Assembly: GCA_903847975.1 (NCBI GenBank)
Contig: CAINFC010000242.1
Span: 1-64,000, forward strand
DNA length: 64,000 nucleotides
Direction of reading: 5' to 3'
Origin: an uncultured Acidobacteriota bacterium
GTDB lineage: Bacteria; Acidobacteriota; UBA6911; CAINFC01
Notes under the pieces: generated by a model
Database searches by the model: none
What the model was told of the DNA's origin: nothing
The model's input: the letters and a program-made list of their open reading frames with translations, nothing else
Translations under genes and position numbers: made by a program
Shown here: positions 38,906 to 60,158 of the stretch, piece after piece
Numbering within the stretch: the stretch's first letter is position 1
How the letters are laid out: every line of letters begins with the position of its first letter

Positions 38906-40348
38906 TCATTTCCCGGAGCCGGCGATGGCGTAAAGTGCGGATGGAGTAGCGATATAAAGAGCGCCGTTGGCGGCCACGGGAGTGCTGTAAACCGCGGCTC
39001 CCATGGAATTTTCGGCGATCTTTTTCAATTCCTTTCCGGCTTCCAGAACGATCACGTCCCCGTCTTCATCCCCAAGGTATACCTTGCTGTCGGCCGCCAG
39101 CGGAGAACCCCAGACGGCACCCAGCATGTCGTAGCTCCAGTGCGGCTTACCGGTTTTGCGGTCCAGGCAGTAGAAAAATCCACTGAAATCGGAGATAAAG
39201 ACCAGCCCGTCGAGCACCGCTGCCGTGGAAAGGGAGCGGCGTATTTCATCGAAGCGCCAGACGCGGCCCGCTTCGGTGATATCTCCCCGCCCGGATCCGT
39301 CGATGCAGTACATGTGGCCGATTCCCTCCCCGTTTTCCGGGTCCTGCCCGATGGCCAGGAAGACCTGGCCGTCCTGAATCACGGGAGTGGCAATTCCGTC
39401 GTTGCGGGTTCGCGGCCAGACGGCATCTTTGGGATTCAGGTCGAAAGACCAAAGTTTTTCCCCGGTCAGGGCGTCGAATCCGTAGAGCCATCCGTCGCCT
39501 CCGGGGAAAAAGGCCTGCCACCGGCCGCCCGCCTGCCCGATGGAAGGTGAGGACCACTGTCCGTGAAGGATGCGGTTTCCCGGAGAACTGTCTTTCCAGG
39601 CCACCTTCCCGGTTTTTCTGTGGACCGCCAGGAAACTGGGGGCCTGGGGAGACGGGATGTTTCTGTGGCTTTCGTCGTGTCCGTTGGAGGTAATCAGAAA
39701 GACCAGATCGCCCCAGACCGCCGGCGAAGAGTTGGCCATATTATGCGGGAAAACGCCCAGCTCCTTCATCATGTCCAGATTCCAGACGATATCTCCGTCG
39801 ATCGGCCCGTGATATCTCTCGCCTTGAAAAGGGCCGTCGTTCCTCCCGTCGAGAAATCCTTCCGTATCCAGGCAAAGCAGCTCGCCCCGGTTGGTCACGT
39901 AATAAAGAAATTTCCCGTCCACCGCCGGAGAGGAGCACACTCCCTGCTCCGGCCAATCGTTGCCCTTTCCCGATTCCAGCTTGTCGGAAACCATCTGCCA
40001 GAGGAATTGGCCGTCCGACTCGCGGAAGCACATCAGAATCCCCTTGTCGCCGCGTATGTCGGGATTTCGCGGATTCCCGTTATTGGTACCCACAAATACC
40101 TTCCCGCCCGAGATGACCGGATTCCCGTAAGAGGTGGTCCCGAGCTTCGATTGCCATCGGATATTCCGTCCTGTTTTCCGGTCCCAGGAGGAGGGCAGTC
40201 CAGAAGCCTTGGAAACCATGTTCCGGGAAACCGTACCGCCCCACATAGGCCAGTCCTGGGCTTCCAGGGACCAAGCGGCCGACAGCAACAGCAGCAGGCG
40301 GAGCATCACCGGGTCGATTCGGCCACGGGAAAAGAGTTTCGAGAGCAT
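38906..40348 (-). CDS. Secreted PQQ-type beta-propeller protein
   Basis: This 480-residue protein has a signal-like hydrophobic stretch at about 15-30, then repeated blades with the pattern G-x-L-x-C-x-D-x-x-T-G-K of PQQ-binding-like propellers (for example LLCLDTEGFLDG, FYCLDRKTGKPHWSYD, LYGFDALTGEKLWSFD). No cofactor-binding cysteine ring or dehydrogenase domain is visible, so PQQ binding is not implied; such propellers often act as scaffolds or outer-membrane assembly-like proteins. The start codon could also be the ATG that puts residue 15 first. It is 45 bases downstream of a second propeller gene, so they form one operon. Confidence 0.8.
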   Translation of the reverse strand: MLSKLFSRGRIDPVMLRLLLLLSAAWSLEAQDWPMWGGTVSRNMVSKASGLPSSWDRKTGRNIRWQSKLGTTSYGNPVISGGKVFVGTNNGNPRNPDIRGDKGILMCFRESDGQFLWQMVSDKLESGKGNDWPEQGVCSSPAVDGKFLYYVTNRGELLCLDTEGFLDGRNDGPFQGERYHGPIDGDIVWNLDMMKELGVFPHNMANSSPAVWGDLVFLITSNGHDESHRNIPSPQAPSFLAVHRKTGKVAWKDSSPGNRILHGQWSSPSIGQAGGRWQAFFPGGDGWLYGFDALTGEKLWSFDLNPKDAVWPRTRNDGIATPVIQDGQVFLAIGQDPENGEGIGHMYCIDGSGRGDITEAGRVWRFDEIRRSLSTAAVLDGLVFISDFSGFFYCLDRKTGKPHWSYDMLGAVWGSPLAADSKVYLGDEDGDVIVLEAGKELKKIAENSMGAAVYSTPVAANGALYIATPSALYAIAGSGK

Positions 40349-40393
40349 GCGAATTACCGCCGAAAAGATGAATGGTTGAAAAATGAACCGAGG

Positions 40394-41824
40394 CTAATTC
40401 TTTTTCTCCGCCGGCGCGGCGAAGCAATACAGGGTCCGGTAGGTGCGCACAAAAAGCCGGCCGTCGGCGATGGCCGGGGTTCCCTTGCACCCGTCCCCCA
40501 TATCGTTGACCTGCAGGATCTGCCATTCGGCCCCGGCCTGCAGGACCGCGACTTTCCCCTCCTCGCTGGCCGTGTAAATTTTTCCGTCCGCCGCCAGCGG
40601 CGATGCATAATACTCGCCCGGAGCACCCTGCAAACGGGCCTGCTTGCGAATCTCCCCGGTGCGCATATCGAAGGAGGTGAAAATGCCCCCCTCCTTCAGG
40701 GTGTACAGCACATCCCGATAGACCAGGGGCGAAGGGACATTGGGCAGCGTGCGCGCATTCTTCCACAGGAGATGCGACTCGGTCAGATCCCCCTTGCCTC
40801 CCAGGCGGTAGGCCCGCAGTCCGTTTTCCCCGAGCCGGCGCTCCTGGAACTGCTGCCAGTCGTGTTCCTCGAGGAAGCCGGAATTGTCGAGATCCAGATA
40901 TTCGTCGAAACGGTCCCGGGCCCGGGGATCGCTCAATTCCTCCTTGGAAAGCCTGCCGTCGCCGTTGCGGTCCATCTGACGGATGGCCTCCGCAAACGGC
41001 GGGACCGTTTCCTGGCTGCCGGGATCCGATTCCCCGGAGTAGGTGACAAAGAAAATTTCATTGCCGTAAATCACCGGGGTCGGTTTGATCTGCCAAGGCA
41101 GCCTGCGGATCCACCAAAGCTCCTCTCCGGTCCGGAGATCATAGCCGGACAGGCGGAAGGAGCCGGCCACCAGTACCTGCCTCACCCCCGCCGGATCCTG
41201 GTAGAGCACGGGTGTGGAATAGCCCCGCTGGGCATGCGGGCGCTCCTTGCGCCACAAAAGGCGACCGGTGCTTTTGTCGACCGCCAGCAGAAAGGATCCG
41301 GTGTCCTGGTCGACGTTCATCAGCAGTTTTTCATCTGCCAGAATGGGCGAGGCGCCGTGCCCGAACGGATTGTTGAAAGGACCGAGAGGTATGCGCCACA
41401 ATTCCTGGCCTGCGGCGCTGTAGGCCAGAAGCCCGAAATCCTGGAAGAAGACCCAGACGCTTTTTCCGTCGCTGACCGGACTGGCGGAGGCCGGTCCGTT
41501 CGACGGCCGCTCGATAACCTGTTTGCGCGGGCGGGGCGCCTCGTTTTTCCAGAGGATCTTTCCCGTGGCCTGGTCCAGGGCGAGTGTGATCAGCGAGTCC
41601 CCCTCAAAGCCGGTCAGATAAATCCGGCCGCCGGCCACCACAGGCGACGAGTTGCCCATCGGCACCGCTGTTTTCCAGACCACATTTTCAGAAGGGCCGA
41701 AAGCGGTGGGCAGTCCGGTGTCCTGCGCAACACCGCTGCTATTGGGACCGCGGAATTGCGGCCAGTCGGCCGCAGCCGGCCGGGCGGAGCAGAAGAGCAG
41801 AAAAATCGCAAAAATCATAGCCAT
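40394..41824 (-). CDS. Secreted PQQ-type propeller with EF-hand insert
   Basis: This 476-residue protein has a signal peptide (MAMIFAIFLLFCSARPAAA) and begins with DWPQFRGPNSSG, the usual start of these propellers in Planctomycetes and Acidobacteria. Blades recur (LALDQATGKILWKNE, LAVDKSTGRLLWRKE, GYDLRTGEELWWIRR). Around residues 285-330 an inserted pair of EF-hand-like loops, DRNGDGRLSKEE and DLDNSGFLEEHD, should bind calcium. It is the first gene of the pair with 38906-40348. Role: periplasmic binding or scaffold protein; the substrate is unknown. Confidence 0.82.
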   Translation of the reverse strand: MAMIFAIFLLFCSARPAAADWPQFRGPNSSGVAQDTGLPTAFGPSENVVWKTAVPMGNSSPVVAGGRIYLTGFEGDSLITLALDQATGKILWKNEAPRPRKQVIERPSNGPASASPVSDGKSVWVFFQDFGLLAYSAAGQELWRIPLGPFNNPFGHGASPILADEKLLMNVDQDTGSFLLAVDKSTGRLLWRKERPHAQRGYSTPVLYQDPAGVRQVLVAGSFRLSGYDLRTGEELWWIRRLPWQIKPTPVIYGNEIFFVTYSGESDPGSQETVPPFAEAIRQMDRNGDGRLSKEELSDPRARDRFDEYLDLDNSGFLEEHDWQQFQERRLGENGLRAYRLGGKGDLTESHLLWKNARTLPNVPSPLVYRDVLYTLKEGGIFTSFDMRTGEIRKQARLQGAPGEYYASPLAADGKIYTASEEGKVAVLQAGAEWQILQVNDMGDGCKGTPAIADGRLFVRTYRTLYCFAAPAEKKN

Positions 41825-41907: not shown

Positions 41908-41942
41908 TTGACTCCCATGTTAGGCTATGCTAACTTTGTTAG
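41908..41942. promoter_or_regulatory. DtxR-type operator and promoter region in front of the regulator
   Basis: TTGACT stands at 41908-41913, followed by TTAG-N6-CTAA (41920-41933), and a second, overlapping perfect palindrome, CTAAC-TTT-GTTAG (41930-41942). TTAG/CTAA half-sites are the core of known DtxR/IdeR boxes. They lie within 30 bases of the ATG at 41947, so they overlap the promoter and suggest autoregulation. Confidence 0.5.
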
Positions 41943-41946
41943 ATAT

Positions 41947-42738
41947 ATGGCAATCAATAGACATAGTTCTGCAAAAGCGGAACAGCTGAGTGCAAGTCTG
42001 GAAGATTATCTGGAAACGATTCTTCAACTGGTCCAGGAAAATAAGGTCGCCCGGGCGAAGGATATCTCCACGCAGATGCAAGTCAGAAAATCATCCGTTA
42101 CCAGCGCTCTGAAGACTCTATCGGAGAAAGGATTCATTCATTATACGCCTTATGGCTTCATCACCCTGACCGAATCGGGAAAAGCGATTGCCGAGGATGT
42201 ATATCGAAGGCATTCGACTCTAAAGGATTTTTTCATCAAGGTCTTGGCCATCGACGCCGAATTGGCCGACACCGGTGCCTGTCAAATGGAACATGCAATT
42301 CCACCCGCGATCCTGGATCGGTTCGTACAGTTTATTGAATTTGTGGACCTCTGCCCCCGAGGAAATATCCGATGGGTACAGGACTTTGGTTATTATTGCC
42401 GGCATGGACATCCGCAGCAGAATTGTATGCGCTGCGTTCAGATGACCGTTGATGAACTTGCCCAGGATCAAAGCAATTTCAACAACGGAGAAAAAGTGCT
42501 TTCCTTGACGGCCCTGAAGCCTGGACAAAAAGCCCAAGTCCGTTCTATCAGGGGCGAAAAAAAATTGGCCGAAAGGCTTATTAAAATGGAGGTAATGCCC
42601 GGAGCATTTATTACTCTCATCCATGTGGCCTCAAATGCAGACAGAATCGAAATTGCTGTTCGCGAAAGCCGTTTCATACTGACGAAGCAGGAAGCGGATC
42701 AGGTTCAGATCGTTTCCATCAGCAACCCCGGCGAATGA
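41947..42738 (+). CDS. DtxR-family iron-type metalloregulator
   Basis: This repressor of about 263 residues has an N-terminal winged helix (EDYLETILQLVQEN, then VRKSSVTSALKTL as recognition helix) and a metal-binding and dimer domain. A C-terminal FeoA-like SH3 domain starts near residue 180. The primary-site motif CQMEH (Cys112, Glu115, His116) equals the Cys102/Glu105/His106 set of DtxR, which suits Fe(II); manganese-type MntR has Glu at the Cys position. Three more cysteines (Cys151, Cys160, Cys163) in a C-x8-C-x-x-C cluster follow, which is unusual. The open frame begins with TTG at 41908, but ATG 41947 is preferred since the upstream part is operator DNA. The next gene is a haem-porin. 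Base composition is lower in GC than around it. Confidence 0.85.
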   Translation: MAINRHSSAKAEQLSASLEDYLETILQLVQENKVARAKDISTQMQVRKSSVTSALKTLSEKGFIHYTPYGFITLTESGKAIAEDVYRRHSTLKDFFIKVLAIDAELADTGACQMEHAIPPAILDRFVQFIEFVDLCPRGNIRWVQDFGYYCRHGHPQQNCMRCVQMTVDELAQDQSNFNNGEKVLSLTALKPGQKAQVRSIRGEKKLAERLIKMEVMPGAFITLIHVASNADRIEIAVRESRFILTKQEADQVQIVSISNPGE

Positions 42739-42765
42739 TATCCGGCAATCACCCCAGGTAACTCG

Positions 42766-42788
42766 GCGGCATCAGGTCGCTTTTTTTT
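42766..42788 (+). terminator. Weak candidate terminator after the regulator gene
   Basis: A 5-bp stem, GCGGC and GTCGC (one G-T pair), has a 5-base loop and is followed by eight T. The stem is short, so read-through is likely. Confidence 0.35.
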
Positions 42789-42800
42789 GGGCTCCAATAG

Positions 42801-42814
42801 TTAGATTGGTCTTA
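42801..42814 (+). promoter_or_regulatory. Candidate DtxR-type operator before the haem-porin gene
   Basis: TTAG-ATTGGT-CTTA differs by one base from the TTAG-N6-CTAA box in front of the regulator. It stands 72 bases before the porin start, in an AT-rich leader with several possible -10 words (TATATT near 42852). Confidence 0.4.
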
Positions 42815-42885
42815 CATAGTACATTGAGGCATATATTGTTCATATTAACTAATGCTTCCATGATTGAGAAAATGAAGGAGAAAAA

Positions 42886-44103
42886 ATGAAAAAAATACTA
42901 AATTTAAGCCGATTTAATGGAAAAAAGACCTGGGCCGGCTCGATCCTCGTGTTAGCCGTTCTCAGCATGTTAACTCTGTCGATCACTCCGGCTTATGCTA
43001 TCAAGGCCTGGGCGGCAAAACATAACATGACATGTAATGCCTGCCATGTGGGACCAGGGAGCGGGCCGTTGACACTGACCGGGCAGAATTTCCAGCGAAA
43101 CGGCTTCCGCATGACCGGCGAGGACAAGAGCACAAGCGACTGGGCCAAGCTGTTCAGTTTCAACGTCAAGCTCCGGGCCCACGATTCGAATGCCGCCGGA
43201 AGGAATGCCACCTTTGAGGCACATGCGGTGGAGCTTTTCAGCGGCGGAAATTTGTCGAAACATTTTTCCTATTTCACCGAATTGTATCTGTATGAAAACA
43301 CGGGAAGGACGACTTCTGCGGTCAACAGCGACCTGGGACGCGGCAAGCTGGCAGATGCGTACCTGATGTACAACTCCCATCCATCCAGGGAGATTTACAC
43401 CACAGTCCGCTTTGGACAGATCACGCCGGGGCTGCCCGACTCAGGCCCTCGTTTTTCCGAAACCCGCCCGTACATCATCAACAACTCAGCAGTATCGCCC
43501 AACACTTTCCGTCCCTTCCAGCGAAACTTCGGAGTGTCCATTGCCCAGCACTTAAAGTCTTTTCATGCCGAGTTTTCATTGGTTAACGGGACGGGATCTT
43601 CGCCGACCAACTCAATCGATACGAACGAGACCAAGGATTTTTATTTGGTACTCGACCAGGACCTCGGTCAAAGTACCAATATAGGTGCATTCGGGTACAA
43701 AGGTCGCGGAGTAATTATTCCGTCTTCCGGGTTCGCCTGGGAGAACCGGTTCCATCGCTATGGGGCCTTCGCGCAGATCTCAATGGGGCAACTCAGTTTC
43801 CTGGGGATGGTTAGCGGCGGTCGAGAACAACTAACCCCACAGGGCAGAAAAGCGAAAAATCTAGGTTTGTTGGGGGAGGCAGCCTTCATGGTCACGGATA
43901 AGCTGTCGCTGTTCGGACGATATGACTTTTTCGACCCGAATCAAGAGATGGCCAACGACCATTGGAGCGGCCCCATGGTCGGAGCGGGGTATGCATTTGC
44001 CGACAGCGGCCGGGTTACTTTTGAATACCACAAGCAGGGAAAATTTGTATCGACGGGAAACATGCCCTGGGAATACCGGGTGGAGGTTGCTTTTATGTTT
44101 TGA
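42886..44103 (+). CDS. Outer-membrane porin with one N-terminal c-type haem (Cyc2-like)
   Basis: This 405-residue protein has a Sec signal ending near AYA38. Right after it, CNACH (Cys50, Cys53, His54) forms a c-type haem site, followed by a short loop with GPLTLTGQNFQRNGFRM. The remaining 320 residues show alternating hydrophobic strands with many aromatic and Gly residues and end in VEVAFMF, a C-terminal Phe as used by outer-membrane barrels. The order of signal, single haem and barrel of about 400 residues matches fused cytochrome-porins such as Cyc2, which pass electrons from Fe(II) through the outer membrane. Homology to true Cyc2 cannot be shown here. GAAGGAG precedes the ATG. It follows an iron-type regulator by 147 bases, and both are AT-rich. 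Confidence 0.72.
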   Translation: MKKILNLSRFNGKKTWAGSILVLAVLSMLTLSITPAYAIKAWAAKHNMTCNACHVGPGSGPLTLTGQNFQRNGFRMTGEDKSTSDWAKLFSFNVKLRAHDSNAAGRNATFEAHAVELFSGGNLSKHFSYFTELYLYENTGRTTSAVNSDLGRGKLADAYLMYNSHPSREIYTTVRFGQITPGLPDSGPRFSETRPYIINNSAVSPNTFRPFQRNFGVSIAQHLKSFHAEFSLVNGTGSSPTNSIDTNETKDFYLVLDQDLGQSTNIGAFGYKGRGVIIPSSGFAWENRFHRYGAFAQISMGQLSFLGMVSGGREQLTPQGRKAKNLGLLGEAAFMVTDKLSLFGRYDFFDPNQEMANDHWSGPMVGAGYAFADSGRVTFEYHKQGKFVSTGNMPWEYRVEVAFMF

Positions 44104-53773: not shown

Positions 53774-56425
53774 TTAACGCTTTCGTATCTGCGTTCCCAC
53801 GGCCTCGAGCAGCTGGGTAATGTTGAAAGGCTTTTTGAAGCAGATCCGGGCACCGGCCTTGGTGGCCTCCTTGAACTCGTCCTCATGGGCTACCCCGCTG
53901 ATCACAATGACCGGCAATTCCGGCTTGGTCTCCTTGAGGGCCTCCAAAACCTCCAGGCCTGGCTTTTTGGGCATCTTCAGGTCGAGGATCAAAAGATCGA
54001 AGTGCTCCTGTTCCAGCTTTTCCAGCCCCTGAACCCCGTCGGAAGCGCTTTTAGCCTCATAGCCCCTTTTCACCAGAGCCTCCACCATCATGGCACTGAG
54101 ATCGTCCTCGTCGTCAATGACCAGAACGTAACCCTTGCTGTCCCTGGCAACGATCGGCTCGACGGTTTCCGCGGCGTGGACCAGCGCTCCGACGGAGGCG
54201 GCGTGTAATCCGGCCATGACGGGAAGATAAATGGAGAAGGTGGTTCCTTCTCCGATCTTGCTGGAAACCCGGATTTCTCCCCTGTGGCCCTGAATGATGG
54301 ACTGACAGATCGTCAGCCCCAACCCCGTTCCTTCCCCGTCCTTCTTCGTCGTATAGAAAGGATTGAAAATGGACGGCAGATCCTTTTCCGGGATTCCCTG
54401 GCCGGTGTCGCTGATTTCAATCCTGACCCGGTGCTTTTCTTCCTCGTGCTTCACAGAAAAGCGCAGATACCCCCCGCGGGGCATGGCGTGGATGGCGTTG
54501 ATGGATAGATTCAGAAAAACCTGCTCGAGCTGTTTGGAATCGGCGTACACCATGGGTGCTCCGGCCTGGAATTCCTCCCGCGCCAATATGCCGCAGGCTT
54601 TCATCCTCTGGGTAAGCAAAGAAAAAACCTGGCGCAGAATAGGCTCCACCTGGATCAGCTCGCACTTCGGCTCTGCCGGCTTGGCCAAACCCATCAGATC
54701 CCGAATGATCTTGGCAATGCGTCCGGTCTGATCCACGATAAGCTGCAGCGCCTTCCGGTCATGCTCGTTGGAGCAGTTGGCCAGCATGAGCTGGGCACGC
54801 CCGGAAATTATGGTCAGCGGATTGTTGATTTCGTGGGCGGCATCGGCAGCCAGGCGGCCAACCGAGGAGAGCCGTTCCATGTGATTGAGCCGCAGCTGTA
54901 CTTCGTCGATCTGGCGCATGGAGCGCACCAGCGCCGCGGCCTGGGACTGATATTTCTCCTGCAGCAGAACCCTTTGCAGCGCCAGCCCCGCGGCACGGCC
55001 GTACTGCCGCAGCAGATCGATCCCCTCGCGGCCGCTCCAGTTGGAATCGACCAGCTCCAGCAGGATTTGTCCCTGGTTGCATCCATTGGCGGAGAGCGGA
55101 AGCACCACCAGATGGCCGTCATGGAGAGCGGAGGAGATTTCCGCTGCCGCGGTCAGCTTTTCGCCCAGCTGCTCCACGGCTTTTTCCACCATGGAAATCT
55201 GCTCCCGGGAATTCCAAAGCATCGGATCGGAAGCGGTATCGGCGGGGAAAGGAAAAAGGATGCGCTCCCAGGCGCCGCCGTTGCTCAGTCGCAAATAGCC
55301 TTCCAGATTCCGCTCCTCCGCCCGGGGGATAAAACCGATCAGGCGCCGGTGAGGAATGGTTTTGCTGAGCAGCTCCAGGATCTTGACCAGTGCCTGGCCG
55401 GAATTGACCGGCAAAGGCAAAGCCTCGGCGATTCCGCGGATCGACTCCAGAATCTGGCACTGCTGCTGCAGCGAGCGGTTTTTGACCGCCATGGCGACGC
55501 TAAGTTCCGAAAGCTCTTCGTTGGCCCGGGCTACGGCCGAAAGATACATCTCCACCGTGCTGCCGCTGAAATCGAAGCACTGGGAAACTTCTTCCAGCCT
55601 TTTTAATACTTCTCCCGAAAAGGATTCCAGCTCCCGTGGCGTAAAACCGGTAATGTGCAGGATGTGATGCAGGTCCAGGTCCGGCAGCGGGCTCCCGCCG
55701 CTTCCAAAGCGGTTCATGGCGCAAACGCTGTTGGCGCACTTGACGATCAGCGGCAGCTGCTTTCCGTTGGATCGTTCGAACTGGCTCAAAGGCTGGTGAT
55801 GAAGCCAGGCGGCATGGGTAAGCGATTCGGGAAACCGCCAGTGGGTCATCAGGTGAAATGCCAGATCGGTATGTCCGATACCAAAACATTTTTCTTCCGC
55901 CTCCAGAAGCCGGATATGCTCTTTCCGCGCCAGTTCCAGTGTCTGGTCGTAAACGCTCGGGTTCCAATGATAAAAAATCATTTTCCCGACATCATGCATT
56001 AAACCGGCGGCAAAAGCTTCCTGAGGCTGGGGATACCCGAAGCGCCTGGAAAGCAGCTCGGCGGCGATGGCACAGGAGGCGTTATGGCTCCACAGATCCA
56101 CCAGGTTGAGATTCTTCCCGTTCTGCAGGTTCTGGAACAGCCTGAATATAAGAATGGAGAGGGAAATCGTTCTTACCAGGTTCAGGCCCAGAAGAGAGAC
56201 TGCCTGGTCGACGGTGGTGATCTTGGATGAAAAGCCGAACTGGGCCGAGTTGCTGACCAGGAGCACCCTCGAAGTTAAAGCCTGGTCCACTTCAATCAGG
56301 TTGATAATCTCTCGCAGATTTACATTTTCCTTGCCCGCCACCTCAATTAATTTGATAGCGACCGTAGGCAACGTCGGCATCTGCTTTAAAGATTCAGCAT
56401 AATGCTTCAATGCGCTGCTATGCAT
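53774..56425 (-). CDS. HDOD-GAF-histidine kinase-receiver fusion protein
   Basis: This 883-residue soluble signalling protein combines domains in an unusual order. An HDOD domain comes first (about 5-270; KQMPTLPTVAIKLI, and MHDVGKMIF with an HD pair), then a GAF-like domain (about 325-480). A histidine kinase core follows with AADAAHEINNPLTI (His531) and an ATP-binding domain (LNLSINAIHAMPRGG, DTGQGIPE, GTGLGLTI). It ends in a receiver with Asp815 (LILDLKMPKK). HDOD proteins integrate signals in motility, biofilm and c-di-GMP networks. No membrane segment is seen. The start at 56425 opens into an AT-rich intergenic region. It is divergent from the roadblock/GTPase genes. Confidence 0.88.
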   Translation of the reverse strand: MHSSALKHYAESLKQMPTLPTVAIKLIEVAGKENVNLREIINLIEVDQALTSRVLLVSNSAQFGFSSKITTVDQAVSLLGLNLVRTISLSILIFRLFQNLQNGKNLNLVDLWSHNASCAIAAELLSRRFGYPQPQEAFAAGLMHDVGKMIFYHWNPSVYDQTLELARKEHIRLLEAEEKCFGIGHTDLAFHLMTHWRFPESLTHAAWLHHQPLSQFERSNGKQLPLIVKCANSVCAMNRFGSGGSPLPDLDLHHILHITGFTPRELESFSGEVLKRLEEVSQCFDFSGSTVEMYLSAVARANEELSELSVAMAVKNRSLQQQCQILESIRGIAEALPLPVNSGQALVKILELLSKTIPHRRLIGFIPRAEERNLEGYLRLSNGGAWERILFPFPADTASDPMLWNSREQISMVEKAVEQLGEKLTAAAEISSALHDGHLVVLPLSANGCNQGQILLELVDSNWSGREGIDLLRQYGRAAGLALQRVLLQEKYQSQAAALVRSMRQIDEVQLRLNHMERLSSVGRLAADAAHEINNPLTIISGRAQLMLANCSNEHDRKALQLIVDQTGRIAKIIRDLMGLAKPAEPKCELIQVEPILRQVFSLLTQRMKACGILAREEFQAGAPMVYADSKQLEQVFLNLSINAIHAMPRGGYLRFSVKHEEEKHRVRIEISDTGQGIPEKDLPSIFNPFYTTKKDGEGTGLGLTICQSIIQGHRGEIRVSSKIGEGTTFSIYLPVMAGLHAASVGALVHAAETVEPIVARDSKGYVLVIDDEDDLSAMMVEALVKRGYEAKSASDGVQGLEKLEQEHFDLLILDLKMPKKPGLEVLEALKETKPELPVIVISGVAHEDEFKEATKAGARICFKKPFNITQLLEAVGTQIRKR

Positions 56426-56688
56426 AAAACAACCTCATCGCTGACAATTCTCCCAAGGATAACTTAATGTTTTACGTTAAGTGATGACAAATTATTTATC
56501 ATAAGTGAAATGTTTTCAAGTTTATTCAAGCGGTGCTCAGGTCGAAACCAAATCACTGTCGCAAAGACTGGTCCGTTCGAGACAGAATTCATGGATAGAA
56601 CTACCCGCTCAAAATGCCGGGTGATTCATAAAAATGAGCTCAACTTGAACGCTACCCATTCCGGATCTTACTTCCTGATCTTCCGGTC

Positions 56689-56745
56689 TTCCTGTGATAA
56701 GGATTGGGCATACACGGCAGGAAAGGAAGAGCGGAAAGAAAAGCG
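56689..56745. repeat. Short interspersed hairpin repeat, copy 3 (inverted)
   Basis: TTCCTGTG and CGGCAGGAAAGG form the hairpin arms. GGAAAGGAAGAGCGGAAAG is the reverse complement of the pyrimidine lead of copies 1 and 2. By-eye match. Confidence 0.45.
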
Positions 56746-56795
56746 ACGGAGCCTGCCGCCGGGAGAATATTCACTTTGAGTCGGGCATGTTAAGG

Positions 56796-56824
56796 TTAAC
56801 TCGAAAGTTCATTATGGCTATGGT
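56796..56824 (+). promoter_or_regulatory. Candidate promoter of the roadblock gene
   Basis: TTAACT (56796-56801) and TATGGT (56819-56824) are 17 bases apart; the leader to ATG 56857 is about 25 bases. Confidence 0.45.
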
Positions 56825-56856
56825 AGTATGTAGAACCAACTTTCGGTAATCGAGAT

Positions 56857-57357
56857 ATGCTCAATCAAACGGTTCTTAGTGAAGAGGATTATCGCCGGCT
56901 CGCCGACATCATTTCACGCCTTTATTCGGAGTCTTCCGCCAAAAGTGTTTTCCTTTTTGACCGCAGCGGGCGGCAAATCACCTCCGAAGGAGTAACCCGC
57001 GGGCTGGATGTCACCAGTTTTGCCTCGCTGACCGCCGGCAGCGTAGCGGCCACCGAGGAGCTGGCGCACCTGGTGGGTGAGGAGGCTTTTCCCGCACAGT
57101 TTCACGAAGGAGTGGAGAACAGCATTTATATTGCCACCATCGGCCGGAAAGCCATCCTGGTCATCCTCTTCAATGATCGCTCCTCGATCGGTCTGGTCCG
57201 GCTGCGCATGAAAAAGGCGATGATGGACCTTTCGCGGGCCTATAGCGAAATAAGCCTGAAAGAAAAAGAAGTCCGGGATACCCACGAAGACGGGCCTGGC
57301 GGCACCGTCCTGGAAAATCTCTCCGAAGAGGATATCGAGAAATTGTTTGCTTCCTAG
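56857..57357 (+). CDS. Roadblock/LC7 domain protein (MglB-like)
   Basis: This 166-residue protein has a roadblock fold: a first helix (DYRRLADIISRLYSES), a central sheet (KSVFLFDRSGRQI, NSIYIATIGRKAILVILF) and a closing helix, plus a charged C-terminal tail of about 40 residues. Roadblock proteins such as MglB act as GTPase-activating partners of MglA. The gene for a MglA-like GTPase begins 80 bases downstream, with its own promoter, on the same strand. The pair probably sets cell polarity or directed motility, by analogy to Myxococcus and Thermus. Confidence 0.82.
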   Translation: MLNQTVLSEEDYRRLADIISRLYSESSAKSVFLFDRSGRQITSEGVTRGLDVTSFASLTAGSVAATEELAHLVGEEAFPAQFHEGVENSIYIATIGRKAILVILFNDRSSIGLVRLRMKKAMMDLSRAYSEISLKEKEVRDTHEDGPGGTVLENLSEEDIEKLFAS

Positions 57358-57386
57358 TTGAAGATTTCCCCGCGGGTTGCTATGAT
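57358..57386 (+). promoter_or_regulatory. Promoter of the MglA-like GTPase gene
   Basis: TTGAAG (57358-57363) starts right at the end of the roadblock gene; TATGAT (57381-57386) follows after exactly 17 bases. The leader to the GTG at 57438 is about 45 bases. Confidence 0.6.
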
Positions 57387-57437
57387 CTTTTTAAAATACA
57401 CTTTTTCACCAACTGTTTTTTACGAATAGGGCGAACC

Positions 57438-58040
57438 GTGTCTTTCATCCATTACGTTCAAAAAGAAATCAATTGCAAGATTGTGTATTACGGACCTGGT
57501 CTGGGGGGGAAAACGACCAACCTGCAATACGTTTACAACACCACCCCCGGACACATGAAAGGCAGGATGATCTCCCTGGCCACGGAAACCGAGCGGACAC
57601 TGTTTTTTGATTTTATGCCTCTGGAAATGGGAGAGATCAAGGGATTCAAGGTGCGCCTTCATCTTTATACGGTGCCCGGCCAGGTTTTTTATAACGCCAG
57701 CCGCAAGCTGATCCTTCGGGGCGTAGACGGAGTCATTTTTGTTGCCGACAGCCAGGAGGAGCGCTTCGACGCCAACATTGAGGCGATCTACAACCTCAAG
57801 GAAAACCTGGCAGAGGAAAACTACGATATCATGGAACTTCCCTATGTACTTCAGCTGAACAAGAGGGACCTGCCCTCGGCCATGGAGCGCGATGTTCTGG
57901 CCAAGGAGTTGAACATCAAAGGGGAAAAGGTTTTTGACGCAATTGCCTGCCAGGGAGTAGGCGTCACGGAGACACTCAAAGAGGCCTCCAAGCAGGTGCT
58001 GATGTACCTGAGAAAAACGCAGCTGGAAAGAGGGGTGTAA
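57438..58040 (+). CDS. mglA: MglA-like small Ras-type GTPase
   Basis: This 200-residue protein is a small GTPase of the MglA group. The P-loop is GPGLGGKTTN (Gly19 to Thr27), the switch II motif is LYTVPGQVFYN, and the guanine-specific motif is LNKRDLP. The LATETERTLFFDF segment between them is typical of MglA. It starts with GTG; MSFIHY then matches the usual MglA beginning. It should cycle between GTP and GDP states under control of the roadblock partner upstream and mark a cell pole or motility complex. It is convergent with the small coiled-coil gene. Confidence 0.9.
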   Translation: MSFIHYVQKEINCKIVYYGPGLGGKTTNLQYVYNTTPGHMKGRMISLATETERTLFFDFMPLEMGEIKGFKVRLHLYTVPGQVFYNASRKLILRGVDGVIFVADSQEERFDANIEAIYNLKENLAEENYDIMELPYVLQLNKRDLPSAMERDVLAKELNIKGEKVFDAIACQGVGVTETLKEASKQVLMYLRKTQLERGV

Positions 58041-58073
58041 TCGTCCGGTCCGGACCCGGAAACCCGGGAACAC

Positions 58074-58670
58074 CTAACTTTTTAAATTCCTGCTCCTGGC
58101 GGCTCGAGCGACCATTTTCACTTTCTGGGTTTCCTGGTCGAGGAAAACGACCAGTTCCATATTCTCGTGCTTCTGCTTTTCCCGCAGCTGGTGCATTTTT
58201 TGAGAAATCATATCTTTGAACTGGTCAACATCCATTTTGAGCTTTTTTTCCCCGTTGCGCAGCCGCATCCCTTGCAATTCCTGATACAAAACAAGCACCT
58301 TCCCTTTTTCCGAGGAAGGATCCTGGATCACTTCCCGGAAATAATCGCGAGTCCCGGAGGGTTCGGCCTGTTCCGGCCTGGTCAGGGATACCAGTTCTTC
58401 TTCGCTGCGCAGGACGCCTTTTTCCTCCCGATCCTGCGTCTGCCGGCGCCAGAGATCTTTGTAAACGGAAAACTTGGCCACCAGCTGATTAAACCGGAAG
58501 CGCTGCGCAAAATTCATTCGCTCCTCCATCAACCGCTTCATAATCTGATCGGTCTGAAAGCGCAGGTTGTTCGGAGGAACCTTCTTGCCACCGGCCAAAA
58601 AGATGTCGTATTCGATGGTCAGTTTTCGTAAACCTTCATCGAACCGGTTCAACTGTTCATCGATTGTCAT
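58074..58670 (-). CDS. Small coiled-coil protein (possibly MXAN_5187-like)
   Basis: This 198-residue cytoplasmic protein is rich in Lys, Glu, Arg and Gln. The first half (LRKLTIEYDIFLAGGKKVPPNNLRF, then RFRFNQLVAKFSVYKDLWRR) resembles a domain I recall from myxobacterial proteins such as MXAN_5187; this is from memory and not checked. The second half is a long charged helix with a short beta strand (MELVVFLDQETQKVKM). It stands between the MglA-like gene (convergent) and selA (divergent), so a link to the GTPase is only positional. Confidence 0.55.
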   Translation of the reverse strand: MTIDEQLNRFDEGLRKLTIEYDIFLAGGKKVPPNNLRFQTDQIMKRLMEERMNFAQRFRFNQLVAKFSVYKDLWRRQTQDREEKGVLRSEEELVSLTRPEQAEPSGTRDYFREVIQDPSSEKGKVLVLYQELQGMRLRNGEKKLKMDVDQFKDMISQKMHQLREKQKHENMELVVFLDQETQKVKMVARAARSRNLKS

Positions 58671-58751
58671 GCCAAATGATAACGCGGAACGATTGGCACG
58701 GTCAATCCTTCCGAAAGCTCAGGAACTCTGCCCTGCAATTTGGCTGGAAAT

Positions 58752-60158
58752 ATGAAAATGGAAAACAGAAACCAATGGCTCCGAAGAATTCCGTCCGTGG
58801 GTGCCCTGCTGCTGGATCCCGTGCTGAAAGATCTGGTTGTCCAATATGGAAAACCCATTGTTCTGGCTCACTTATCCATGTTGCTTAATGAAATACGCAA
58901 AGGAATCCTCTCCTCCGTCAGTCCACCATTGAAATCACAGGAAGAAGCTATGGAAAAGATCCTTTCGGAATTGAACATTCGCCTGAAGCATTCGAGCCGG
59001 TTCCAATTGCAGCGGGTAATTAACGCCACCGGAGTCATTATTCACACCAACCTGGGACGTTCCCCCCTGTCTGCCGCAGCGGTATCCGCGGTGGAAGCGG
59101 TGATGCAGGGGTATTCCAACCTGGAATACAGCCTTGAAGAAGGGGCCCGAGGCCATCGGGATCAGAATCTGGCGCCTGAAATATGCCGCGTTCTGGGGTG
59201 CGAGGATGCCACCATAGTCAACAACGCCGCCGCCGGACTGTTCCTGACCCTGAACGAGCTGGCTTCGGGCAGAGAGACCGTCGTATCGAGAGGAGAGCTG
59301 GTGGAAATCGGGGGTTCCTTCCGGATTCCGGAAATTATGAAAGCCAGCGGAACCCTGCTGCGGGAAGTGGGAACCACCAACAAAACAAGGCTGGCGGACT
59401 ATGCCGCCGCCACTCACGGCAATACCGCACTTCTGCTGAAGGTCCACGCCAGCAACTTCCGCCTGCTCGGATTTACCGAGTCCGTTCCGATACGCGAGCT
59501 TGCCACGCTGGCCCGGGCGCACGACATTCCCCTGGTGGAAGACACGGGCAGCGGATTTCTGGCGCCCGGGGAAAGTGCCCCTGCCGGGGAAGAGCCTTGT
59601 CCCCGTGAAAGCTTATCGCAGGGGTGTGACCTGGTTATTTTTTCCGGAGACAAGCTCCTCGGCGGACCGCAGGCGGGAATTCTGGCCGGAAAAGCAAAAT
59701 GGATTCAAAGGCTGCGCCGCAATCCGCTCATGCGCATTCTGCGGCCCGATAAGATGACCCTGGCCGCCCTGGAAGCGACATTCCGGATATACGGCACAGA
59801 TCCTTTGGGAACAGGGATTCCTGTGTTGCAGATGATCCGTGCCGCTCCATCCGATCTGAAACGAAGGGCTCATAATCTGCGGAAGCGAATTCTGCGTAAA
59901 GGCCCGGAGGAGTGGACGGTGGAAGTGACCGCCATGGATTCCCTGATCGGCGGCGGCAGCTTCCCTGGTCAGAATCTGCCTTCCTGGGGACTGCGCTTCG
60001 GATCGGTTTCCTGTTCGGTTGCCACGCTGGAGGAGAAGCTGCGGCGCAACGATCCCCCGATTATTGCCCGCATCGAGGAAGGCCGGGTTCTGATGGACAT
60101 GCGTACCATCCGCGCCGAAGAGGAACGGGAAATCGTCTCCTTCTTTACCGGACGGTAG
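58752..60158 (+). CDS. selA: L-seryl-tRNA(Sec) selenium transferase
   Basis: This PLP enzyme of about 468 residues converts seryl-tRNA(Sec) to selenocysteinyl-tRNA(Sec) with selenophosphate. The PLP lysine lies in FSGDKLLGGPQAGI; RVINATGVIIHTNLGRSPL and EDTGSGFL are further family motifs. The N-terminal tRNA-binding helices are present. The start is ATG 58752 or the ATG six bases later; a TTG at 58740 is open but unlikely. It implies that the organism reads some UGA codons as selenocysteine. selB, selC and selD are not in the window. Confidence 0.93.
   Translation: MKMENRNQWLRRIPSVGALLLDPVLKDLVVQYGKPIVLAHLSMLLNEIRKGILSSVSPPLKSQEEAMEKILSELNIRLKHSSRFQLQRVINATGVIIHTNLGRSPLSAAAVSAVEAVMQGYSNLEYSLEEGARGHRDQNLAPEICRVLGCEDATIVNNAAAGLFLTLNELASGRETVVSRGELVEIGGSFRIPEIMKASGTLLREVGTTNKTRLADYAAATHGNTALLLKVHASNFRLLGFTESVPIRELATLARAHDIPLVEDTGSGFLAPGESAPAGEEPCPRESLSQGCDLVIFSGDKLLGGPQAGILAGKAKWIQRLRRNPLMRILRPDKMTLAALEATFRIYGTDPLGTGIPVLQMIRAAPSDLKRRAHNLRKRILRKGPEEWTVEVTAMDSLIGGGSFPGQNLPSWGLRFGSVSCSVATLEEKLRRNDPPIIARIEEGRVLMDMRTIRAEEEREIVSFFTGR

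What the first reader, a model, noticed from the sequence alone, without database searches (positions are those of the whole stretch)
42886..44103. Cyc2-like single-haem porin in an AT-rich island
A signal peptide is followed at once by CNACH and then by a barrel-like sequence ending in Phe. The order and length (405 residues) match fused cytochrome-porins that carry electrons across the outer membrane in Fe(II) oxidisers. Finding one in a glycan-degrading acidobacterium-like genome, beside an iron-type regulator, suggests an electron-transfer or iron-linked trait not expected from the rest of the window. The pattern is read from sequence; the Cyc2 link is inference, because CxxCH-plus-barrel proteins also exist outside Cyc2.
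Basis: partly seen in the sequence, partly recalled or inferred. Interest (0 to 1): 0.75.

Follow-up and report, generated by a model that had tools for sequence, protein, structure and literature searches.

The report
Unusual outer-membrane haem barrel protein
An acidobacterium carries a predicted outer-membrane barrel plugged by a single haem, built like the iron-oxidising protein Cyc2 but belonging to a separate, apparently undescribed branch that is repeatedly found beside metal-sensing regulators.

Summary
In detail: 42886-44103 (+) is a 405-residue ORF with a signal peptide, one CNACH haem site and a terminal Phe, on an AT-rich two-gene island. A 36-sequence AlphaFold2 model (pLDDT 78.7) gives exactly 16 strands; the best solved matches are the porins OprP and OprO, the templates reported for Cyc2. 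The cytochrome-porin architecture is therefore well supported. Membership of Cyc2 is not: the defining AXPXFAR[Q/K][T/Y] and PXL motifs are absent. In a tree the protein is a lone deep branch of a supported clade of 35 proteins that all lack the motif (Geothrix and relatives, Opitutaceae, Bdellovibrionota, Elusimicrobiota, Lindowbacteria). Most of this clade (30 of 34) has a His where Cyc2-motif proteins mostly have Tyr. In 20 of 34 loci it lies beside a same-strand CusRS/CopRS-like regulator or kinase (1 of 14 outside). The window copy is divergent: it lost that His and a near-invariant Arg, and sits beside a DtxR-FeoA regulator whose relatives adjoin feoAB. I read it as a metal-regulated outer-membrane electron-transfer porin; direction and substrate are unknown. 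Energy-yielding Fe(II) oxidation is possible but unsupported. New variant of a known kind.

The parts
41919..41934 (+). Candidate operator of the regulator: perfect inverted repeat GTTAG-N6-CTAAC just after a TTGAC box, upstream of the regulator's likely ATG
   Evidence: Sequence; the only exact match in the window; relatives upstream of feoAB show TTGACA followed at once by TTAGGC- or GTTAG-type half sites
41947..42738 (+). DtxR/MntR-type metalloregulator fused to a FeoA domain, with a Cys/His-rich linker; likely start 41947 (the longest ORF begins at TTG 41908)
   Evidence: Pfam PF01325, PF02742, PF04023 above cut-off; homologues at 43-45% identity sit directly upstream of feoA-feoB in other Acidobacteriota
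42765..42788 (+). Terminator-like stem and T run between regulator and porin gene (weak)
   Evidence: 3 such sites found against 3.0 expected in shuffles, so only its position speaks for it
42800..42815 (+). Second, one-mismatch copy of the regulator's inverted repeat (GTTAGATTGGTCTTAC) upstream of the porin gene; suggestive only
   Evidence: a 147-bp region of this composition holds such a match in 0.3% of simulations, but the pattern was chosen after the fact
42886..44103 (+). Single-haem cytochrome-porin (P0001), 405 aa
42886..42999 (+). Signal peptide (residues 1-38, ending AYA)
   Evidence: Sequence; helix 16-30 in the model; not run through a dedicated predictor
43033..43047 (+). CNACH haem-attachment site (residues 50-54)
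   Evidence: Sequence; Cys50, Cys53, His54 invariant in 36 aligned proteins
43153..44097 (+). 16-strand beta barrel (residues 90-404), terminal Phe follows
   Evidence: AlphaFold2 model with 36 sequences, pLDDT 78.7, pTM 0.77; matches OprP, OprO and other 16-strand porins

Best explanation
The gene encodes an outer-membrane cytochrome-porin of a clade separate from Cyc2. After export and haem attachment by the cytochrome c assembly machinery, the N-terminal segment (residues 39-89) holds one c-type haem at the periplasmic mouth of a 16-strand barrel, so that one electron can pass between a small solute in the pore (a metal ion, chelate or organic shuttle) and a periplasmic carrier. Expression is tied to metal status: in most relatives by an adjacent heavy-metal-type two-component system, in the window by an adjacent DtxR-FeoA regulator of the kind found at ferrous-iron uptake genes. 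In this organism I think an iron-linked role is most likely (redox handling of iron at the outer membrane in support of iron uptake or homeostasis), not energy-yielding Fe(II) oxidation. Supported by sequence and prediction: architecture, haem site, clade, neighbours. Inferred: outer-membrane location, haem position, electron direction, substrate, regulation by the neighbour.
For: Signal peptide, CNACH and full-length conservation. 16-strand model at pLDDT 78.7 whose best structural matches are OprP and OprO (Z 25.7, 25.5), the same porins reported as Cyc2 templates (PMC8406198). Supported separate clade of 35 proteins (98/97). Same-strand CusRS/CopRS-like regulator or kinase within 1.5 kb in 20 of 34 clade loci against 1 weak hit in 14 outside, placed upstream in some lineages and downstream in others, which points to a functional link; TIGR01387 and TIGR01386 above cut-off for two of three regulators and two of three kinases tested. 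Window neighbour is DtxR+FeoA, whose relatives lie directly upstream of feoA-feoB; the genome has a second such regulator at its own feoB (G000:C27). Both genes of the island share low GC. Cytochrome c assembly genes and three haem-copper oxidase genes present.
Against: The window copy lost the clade's usual His74 (Phe here), Arg44 (Ala) and Pro40 (Lys), so its haem may be ligated differently or the protein may have drifted in function. The DtxR pairing was seen only here; no clade relative has it, so it may be chance neighbourhood within an imported segment. A terminator-like site lies between the two genes. Regulator-porin links by adjacency are correlative.
Confidence: 0.5

Rival explanations
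1. A genuine, divergent Cyc2 (cluster-3 type) that oxidises dissolved Fe(II) in the pore and feeds electrons to a periplasmic cytochrome and an oxidase for energy.
For: Same fused architecture and barrel size (PMC8406198); iron-type regulator beside it; three haem-copper oxidase genes; the Cyc2 group already covers proteins sharing only 11.4% identity (PMC10654088).
Against: AXPXFAR[Q/K][T/Y] is AIKAWAAKH here (3 of 7 fixed positions) and PXL is absent; groups apart from the motif-bearing rows in the tree; no RuBisCO in a 99%-complete genome, no MtrB/PioB; clade members include Geothrix, described as an electrogen and tallied with no oxidative-EET genes in PMC12285243.
Confidence: 0.18
2. A copper/heavy-metal stress protein: the clade's barrels take part in metal or redox stress at the outer membrane under CusRS-like control, with the haem used to oxidise or sense the metal, and the window copy was recruited to an iron regulator.
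For: CusRS/CopRS-like two-component systems adjacent in 20 of 34 loci; RND efflux, TolC, a CopA-like ATPase or small His/Met-rich proteins in some neighbourhoods (L035-L039, read from sequence, not run against families).
Against: The same regulators also score well against families with other signals (for example HprR); no metal-efflux genes next to the window gene; efflux genes appear only in some, mostly more distant, relatives.
Confidence: 0.2
3. An outer-membrane conduit for anaerobic respiration: electrons leave the cell through the haem and pore to soluble Fe(III), humics or quinones.
For: Clade members in Geothrix, an electrogen (PMC12285243); cytochrome genes beside some members (L035, L047-L049, L056, L058).
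Against: A single haem cannot by itself span a membrane; no multihaem partner next to the window gene; no MtrB/PioB in the genome.
Confidence: 0.12

Closest known systems
Cyc2 / Cyt572 fused cytochrome-porins (PMC8406198, PMC7029218, PMC10654088)
   Same: Signal peptide, one CXXCH close to the mature N terminus, 16-strand porin related in fold to OprO/OprP, about 400 residues
   Different: Lacks the AXPXFAR[Q/K][T/Y] and PXL motifs; the clade mostly has W-Q-L after the haem and GHR where the motif-bearing proteins here mostly have GY; neighbours are metal-type regulators
OprP / OprO phosphate-type porins (PF07396; 2o4v, 4rjw)
   Same: Closest solved barrels (Z 25.7 and 25.5, 300-304 residues aligned)
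   Different: No haem in those porins (general knowledge); 12% identity; Pfam model E = 0.012, below cut-off
DtxR/MntR-FeoA regulators at feoAB in Acidobacteriota
   Same: The neighbour at 41947-42738 has the same domains and 43-45% identity
   Different: Here next to a cytochrome-porin instead of feoA-feoB
MtrAB/MtoAB/PioAB porin-cytochrome complexes
   Same: Barrel plus c-type haem at the outer membrane
   Different: Those are 26-strand barrels with a separate decahaem protein (PMC8406198); MtrB/PioB absent from this genome

Membership tests
Cyc2 (clusters 1-3) | Signal peptide and a single CXXCH near the N terminus, length at least 365 | tested here: met
   405 aa, CNACH at 50-54, one motif only
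Cyc2 (clusters 1-3) | Fused 16-strand porin with OprO/OprP-like fold | tested here: met
   16 strands, pLDDT 78.7; OprP/OprO best Z; prediction only
Cyc2 (clusters 1-3) | AXPXFAR[Q/K][T/Y] upstream of CXXCH, stated to be unique to Cyc2 (PMC8406198) | tested here: not met
   AIKAWAAKH: 3 of 7 fixed positions match
Cyc2 (clusters 1-3) | PXL four residues downstream of CXXCH | tested here: not met
   CNACH-VGPG-SGP; a shifted PLTL follows
Cyc2 (clusters 1-3) | Phylogenetic placement among characterised Cyc2 sequences | tested here: inconclusive
   Apart from 8 motif-bearing proteins of Acidobacteriota and other phyla, in a 98/97 clade; no biochemically tested Cyc2 sequence could be fetched, and long branches meet
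Cyc2 (clusters 1-3) | Reduced by Fe(II), suitable redox potential, outer membrane location | not testable with these tools
   Needs the purified protein
Porin_O_P (PF07396) | Score above Pfam gathering cut-off | tested here: not met
   15.3 bits against 20.9; 2 of 36 aligned proteins reach E 0.01
DtxR/MntR-FeoA regulator (neighbour gene) | Fe_dep_repress, Fe_dep_repr_C and FeoA domains above cut-off | tested here: met
   57.7, 69.3 and 55 bits against cut-offs 26, 27 and 23

The most novel reading that the evidence does not exclude
An undescribed class of outer-membrane single-haem porins, distinct from Cyc2 by haem surroundings (conserved GHR, likely a His second ligand in most members) and by recurrent pairing with metal-sensing regulators, serves metal-controlled electron exchange in bacteria not regarded as Fe(II) oxidisers; the window copy is a re-wired, iron-controlled member.
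Probability: 0.35. Interest if true: 0.7.

Novelty: new variant of a known kind. Interest (0 to 1): 0.5.

Why it matters
Cyc2 is used as the marker gene for Fe(II) oxidation in metagenomes. A group with the same architecture but different haem surroundings, different regulators and a home in cultured bacteria such as Geothrix would show that single-haem porins should not be read as iron oxidases by architecture alone, and it gives a cultured system in which another role for them can be tested.

Tried and rejected
Single-sequence searches of PDB, NCBIfam and PHROGs gave nothing. Plasmids held no relative and viral contigs none, so a mobile carrier for the island is not shown. A first AlphaFold2 run on six sequences was poor (pLDDT 42) and was replaced. 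The idea that this is a 'FeoE' porin was dropped: FeoE in the held papers is a Shewanella iron exporter. The DtxR pairing was looked for in clade relatives and not found. VIA-align lists no haem protein among its top 50, which says nothing about the small haem segment.

Full report
What is there. The ORF at 42886-44103 (+) is 405 codons long, starts with ATG behind a strong ribosome site, and encodes a signal peptide ending AYA, then IKAWAAKHNMTCNACH, then about 350 residues, mostly barrel-like, ending in Phe. It and its upstream neighbour form an AT-rich island: regulator 48% GC (GC3 52%), cytochrome-porin 52.5% (GC3 63%), flanking genes 59-63% GC with GC3 71-77%. The gene has a single copy in the 8.13-Mb genome. 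None of the same-class genomes sampled has a match at the 1e-15 level; the sporadic relatives lie in other classes of the phylum. The phylum is Acidobacteriota, since same-phylum genomes G234 and G166 correspond in contig length and position to the Geothrix limicola and G. fermentans records.

Architecture. With six sequences the fold prediction was poor. With 36 sequences it reached pLDDT 78.7 and pTM 0.77 and shows exactly 16 strands from residue 90 to 404, with a short N-terminal segment carrying the haem motif and two short helices. Foldseek finds 234 solved chains at E below 0.001, and nearly all rows shown are outer-membrane barrels. The second look ranks OprP (Z 25.7, 300 residues, 3.2 A) and OprO (Z 25.5) first, with other 16-strand porins close behind (rows within 1 Z unit are tied). 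OprO and OprP are the porins named as structural relatives of Cyc2 (PMC8406198).

Is it Cyc2? PMC8406198 states that AXPXFAR[Q/K][T/Y] upstream of the haem site is unique to Cyc2 and that a PXL follows it, and its 1,593-sequence set was screened on the motif. Here the stretch reads AIKAWAAKH (3 of 7 fixed positions), and PXL is missing at its place. Among 49 related proteins, eight carry the strict motif, including L009 from another acidobacterium (AVPSFARQT...CNVCHSNPPELTAFGRNFKLHGY). In an IQ-TREE tree the window protein is a lone deep branch in a clade of 35 proteins without the motif, support 98/97; the motif-bearing rows lie outside. Long branches are present, and no biochemically tested Cyc2 could be included, so 'separate from Cyc2 cluster 3' is likely but not proved. 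By the motif test I do not file it as Cyc2; it may still work like one.

The clade. Members occur in Geothrix and other Holophagaceae, Opitutaceae and other Verrucomicrobiota, Bdellovibrionota, Elusimicrobiota, Lindowbacteria and further acidobacteria, many from groundwater. In the 34 clade sequences aligned, Arg44 is present in 33, Pro40 in 25, and position 74 is His in 30 (motif GHR), where the motif-bearing proteins outside mostly have Tyr (GY). His74 is a candidate second haem ligand (inference). The window protein has Ala44, Lys40 and Phe74, so it is an outlier even in its own clade; Met48 or Met76 could serve instead (inference).

Neighbours. In 20 of 34 clade loci a response regulator and/or sensor kinase of one type lies within 1.5 kb on the same strand; outside the clade 1 of 14, with a weak score (flanks are shorter for some control loci, and the loci are not phylogenetically independent). 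In Geothrix and in acidobacterium L057 the pair lies upstream; in Opitutaceae, Bdellovibrionota and a second group within the same family as Geothrix (L024-L028) it lies downstream, so the association probably formed more than once. NCBIfam names two of three regulators and two of three kinases tested as heavy-metal type (TIGR01387, TIGR01386) above cut-off; the Holophagaceae pair falls just below. Some more distant members have RND efflux or copper ATPase-like genes nearby (read from sequence). The window has none of this. Its neighbour is a DtxR/MntR-type regulator with a FeoA domain. Homologues of that regulator at 43-45% identity in other Acidobacteriota lie directly upstream of feoA-feoB, and the window genome has a second such regulator at its own feoB (G000:C27). 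So the window regulator looks like a feo-type regulator next to a cytochrome-porin instead of the iron transporter.

Control elements. Upstream of the regulator's likely ATG (41947), TTGAC is followed by GTTAGGCTATGCTAAC, the only exact GTTAG-N6-CTAAC in the window. Most homologous promoters at feo loci show a similar plan (TTGACA, then TTAGGC- or GTTAG-type half sites), so autoregulation is credible. Upstream of the porin gene a one-mismatch copy occurs at 42800; simulated regions of the same composition contain one in 0.3% of cases, but the pattern was picked after seeing the first site, so this is a lead only. A terminator-like stem lies between the genes (no enrichment over shuffles).

Physiology. 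The genome has cytochrome c assembly genes and three haem-copper oxidase genes, no RuBisCO and no MtrB/PioB. These fit a heterotroph with oxygen respiration that can make the protein, and do not suggest an autotrophic iron oxidiser.

How it probably works. A haem plug at the periplasmic mouth of a narrow barrel can exchange one electron with a small solute in the pore. Which way and with what is open. Because of the feo-type regulator I favour an iron-linked role in uptake or homeostasis for the window copy (0.5), with energy-yielding Fe(II) oxidation (0.18), copper or heavy-metal stress (0.2) and respiratory electron export (0.12) as rivals.

Novelty. Fused single-haem porins are known; this branch, its His signature and its regulator pairing I did not find in the open-access library searched, which lacks most subscription journals. 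I rate it a new variant of a known kind.

Noticed in passing
41947-42738: The DtxR-FeoA regulator has a Cys/His-rich linker (CPRGNIRWVQDFGYYCRHGHPQQNCMRC); homologues upstream of feoAB in L065, L066 and L068 keep most of it, suggesting an extra metal or cluster site.
   Followed up: partly
L047 5563-5964, L048 4946-5470, L049 5534-5920: In Opitutaceae a small single-haem protein (KLAWNKKAKKYD...CTACHVPEKPKK) lies just upstream of the cytochrome-porin and could be its electron partner.
   Followed up: no
L045 5959-8865: A Bdellovibrio-type genome carries the cytochrome-porin as a tandem duplicate followed by a two-component system.
   Followed up: no
L056 1544-2257: In a Holophagaceae genome the next gene encodes a membrane protein with a single CASCH haem motif, a possible inner-membrane partner.
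   Followed up: no
38906-41824: Two adjacent PQQ/BamB-like beta-propeller proteins on the minus strand, one with an EF-hand inserted in the propeller.
   Followed up: no
56000-60158: Second AT-rich stretch (56-59 kb, about 48-52% GC) with an MglA-like small GTPase gene at 57438-58040 and a SelA-like gene at 58740-60158 (names read from sequence only), hinting at selenocysteine use.
   Followed up: no
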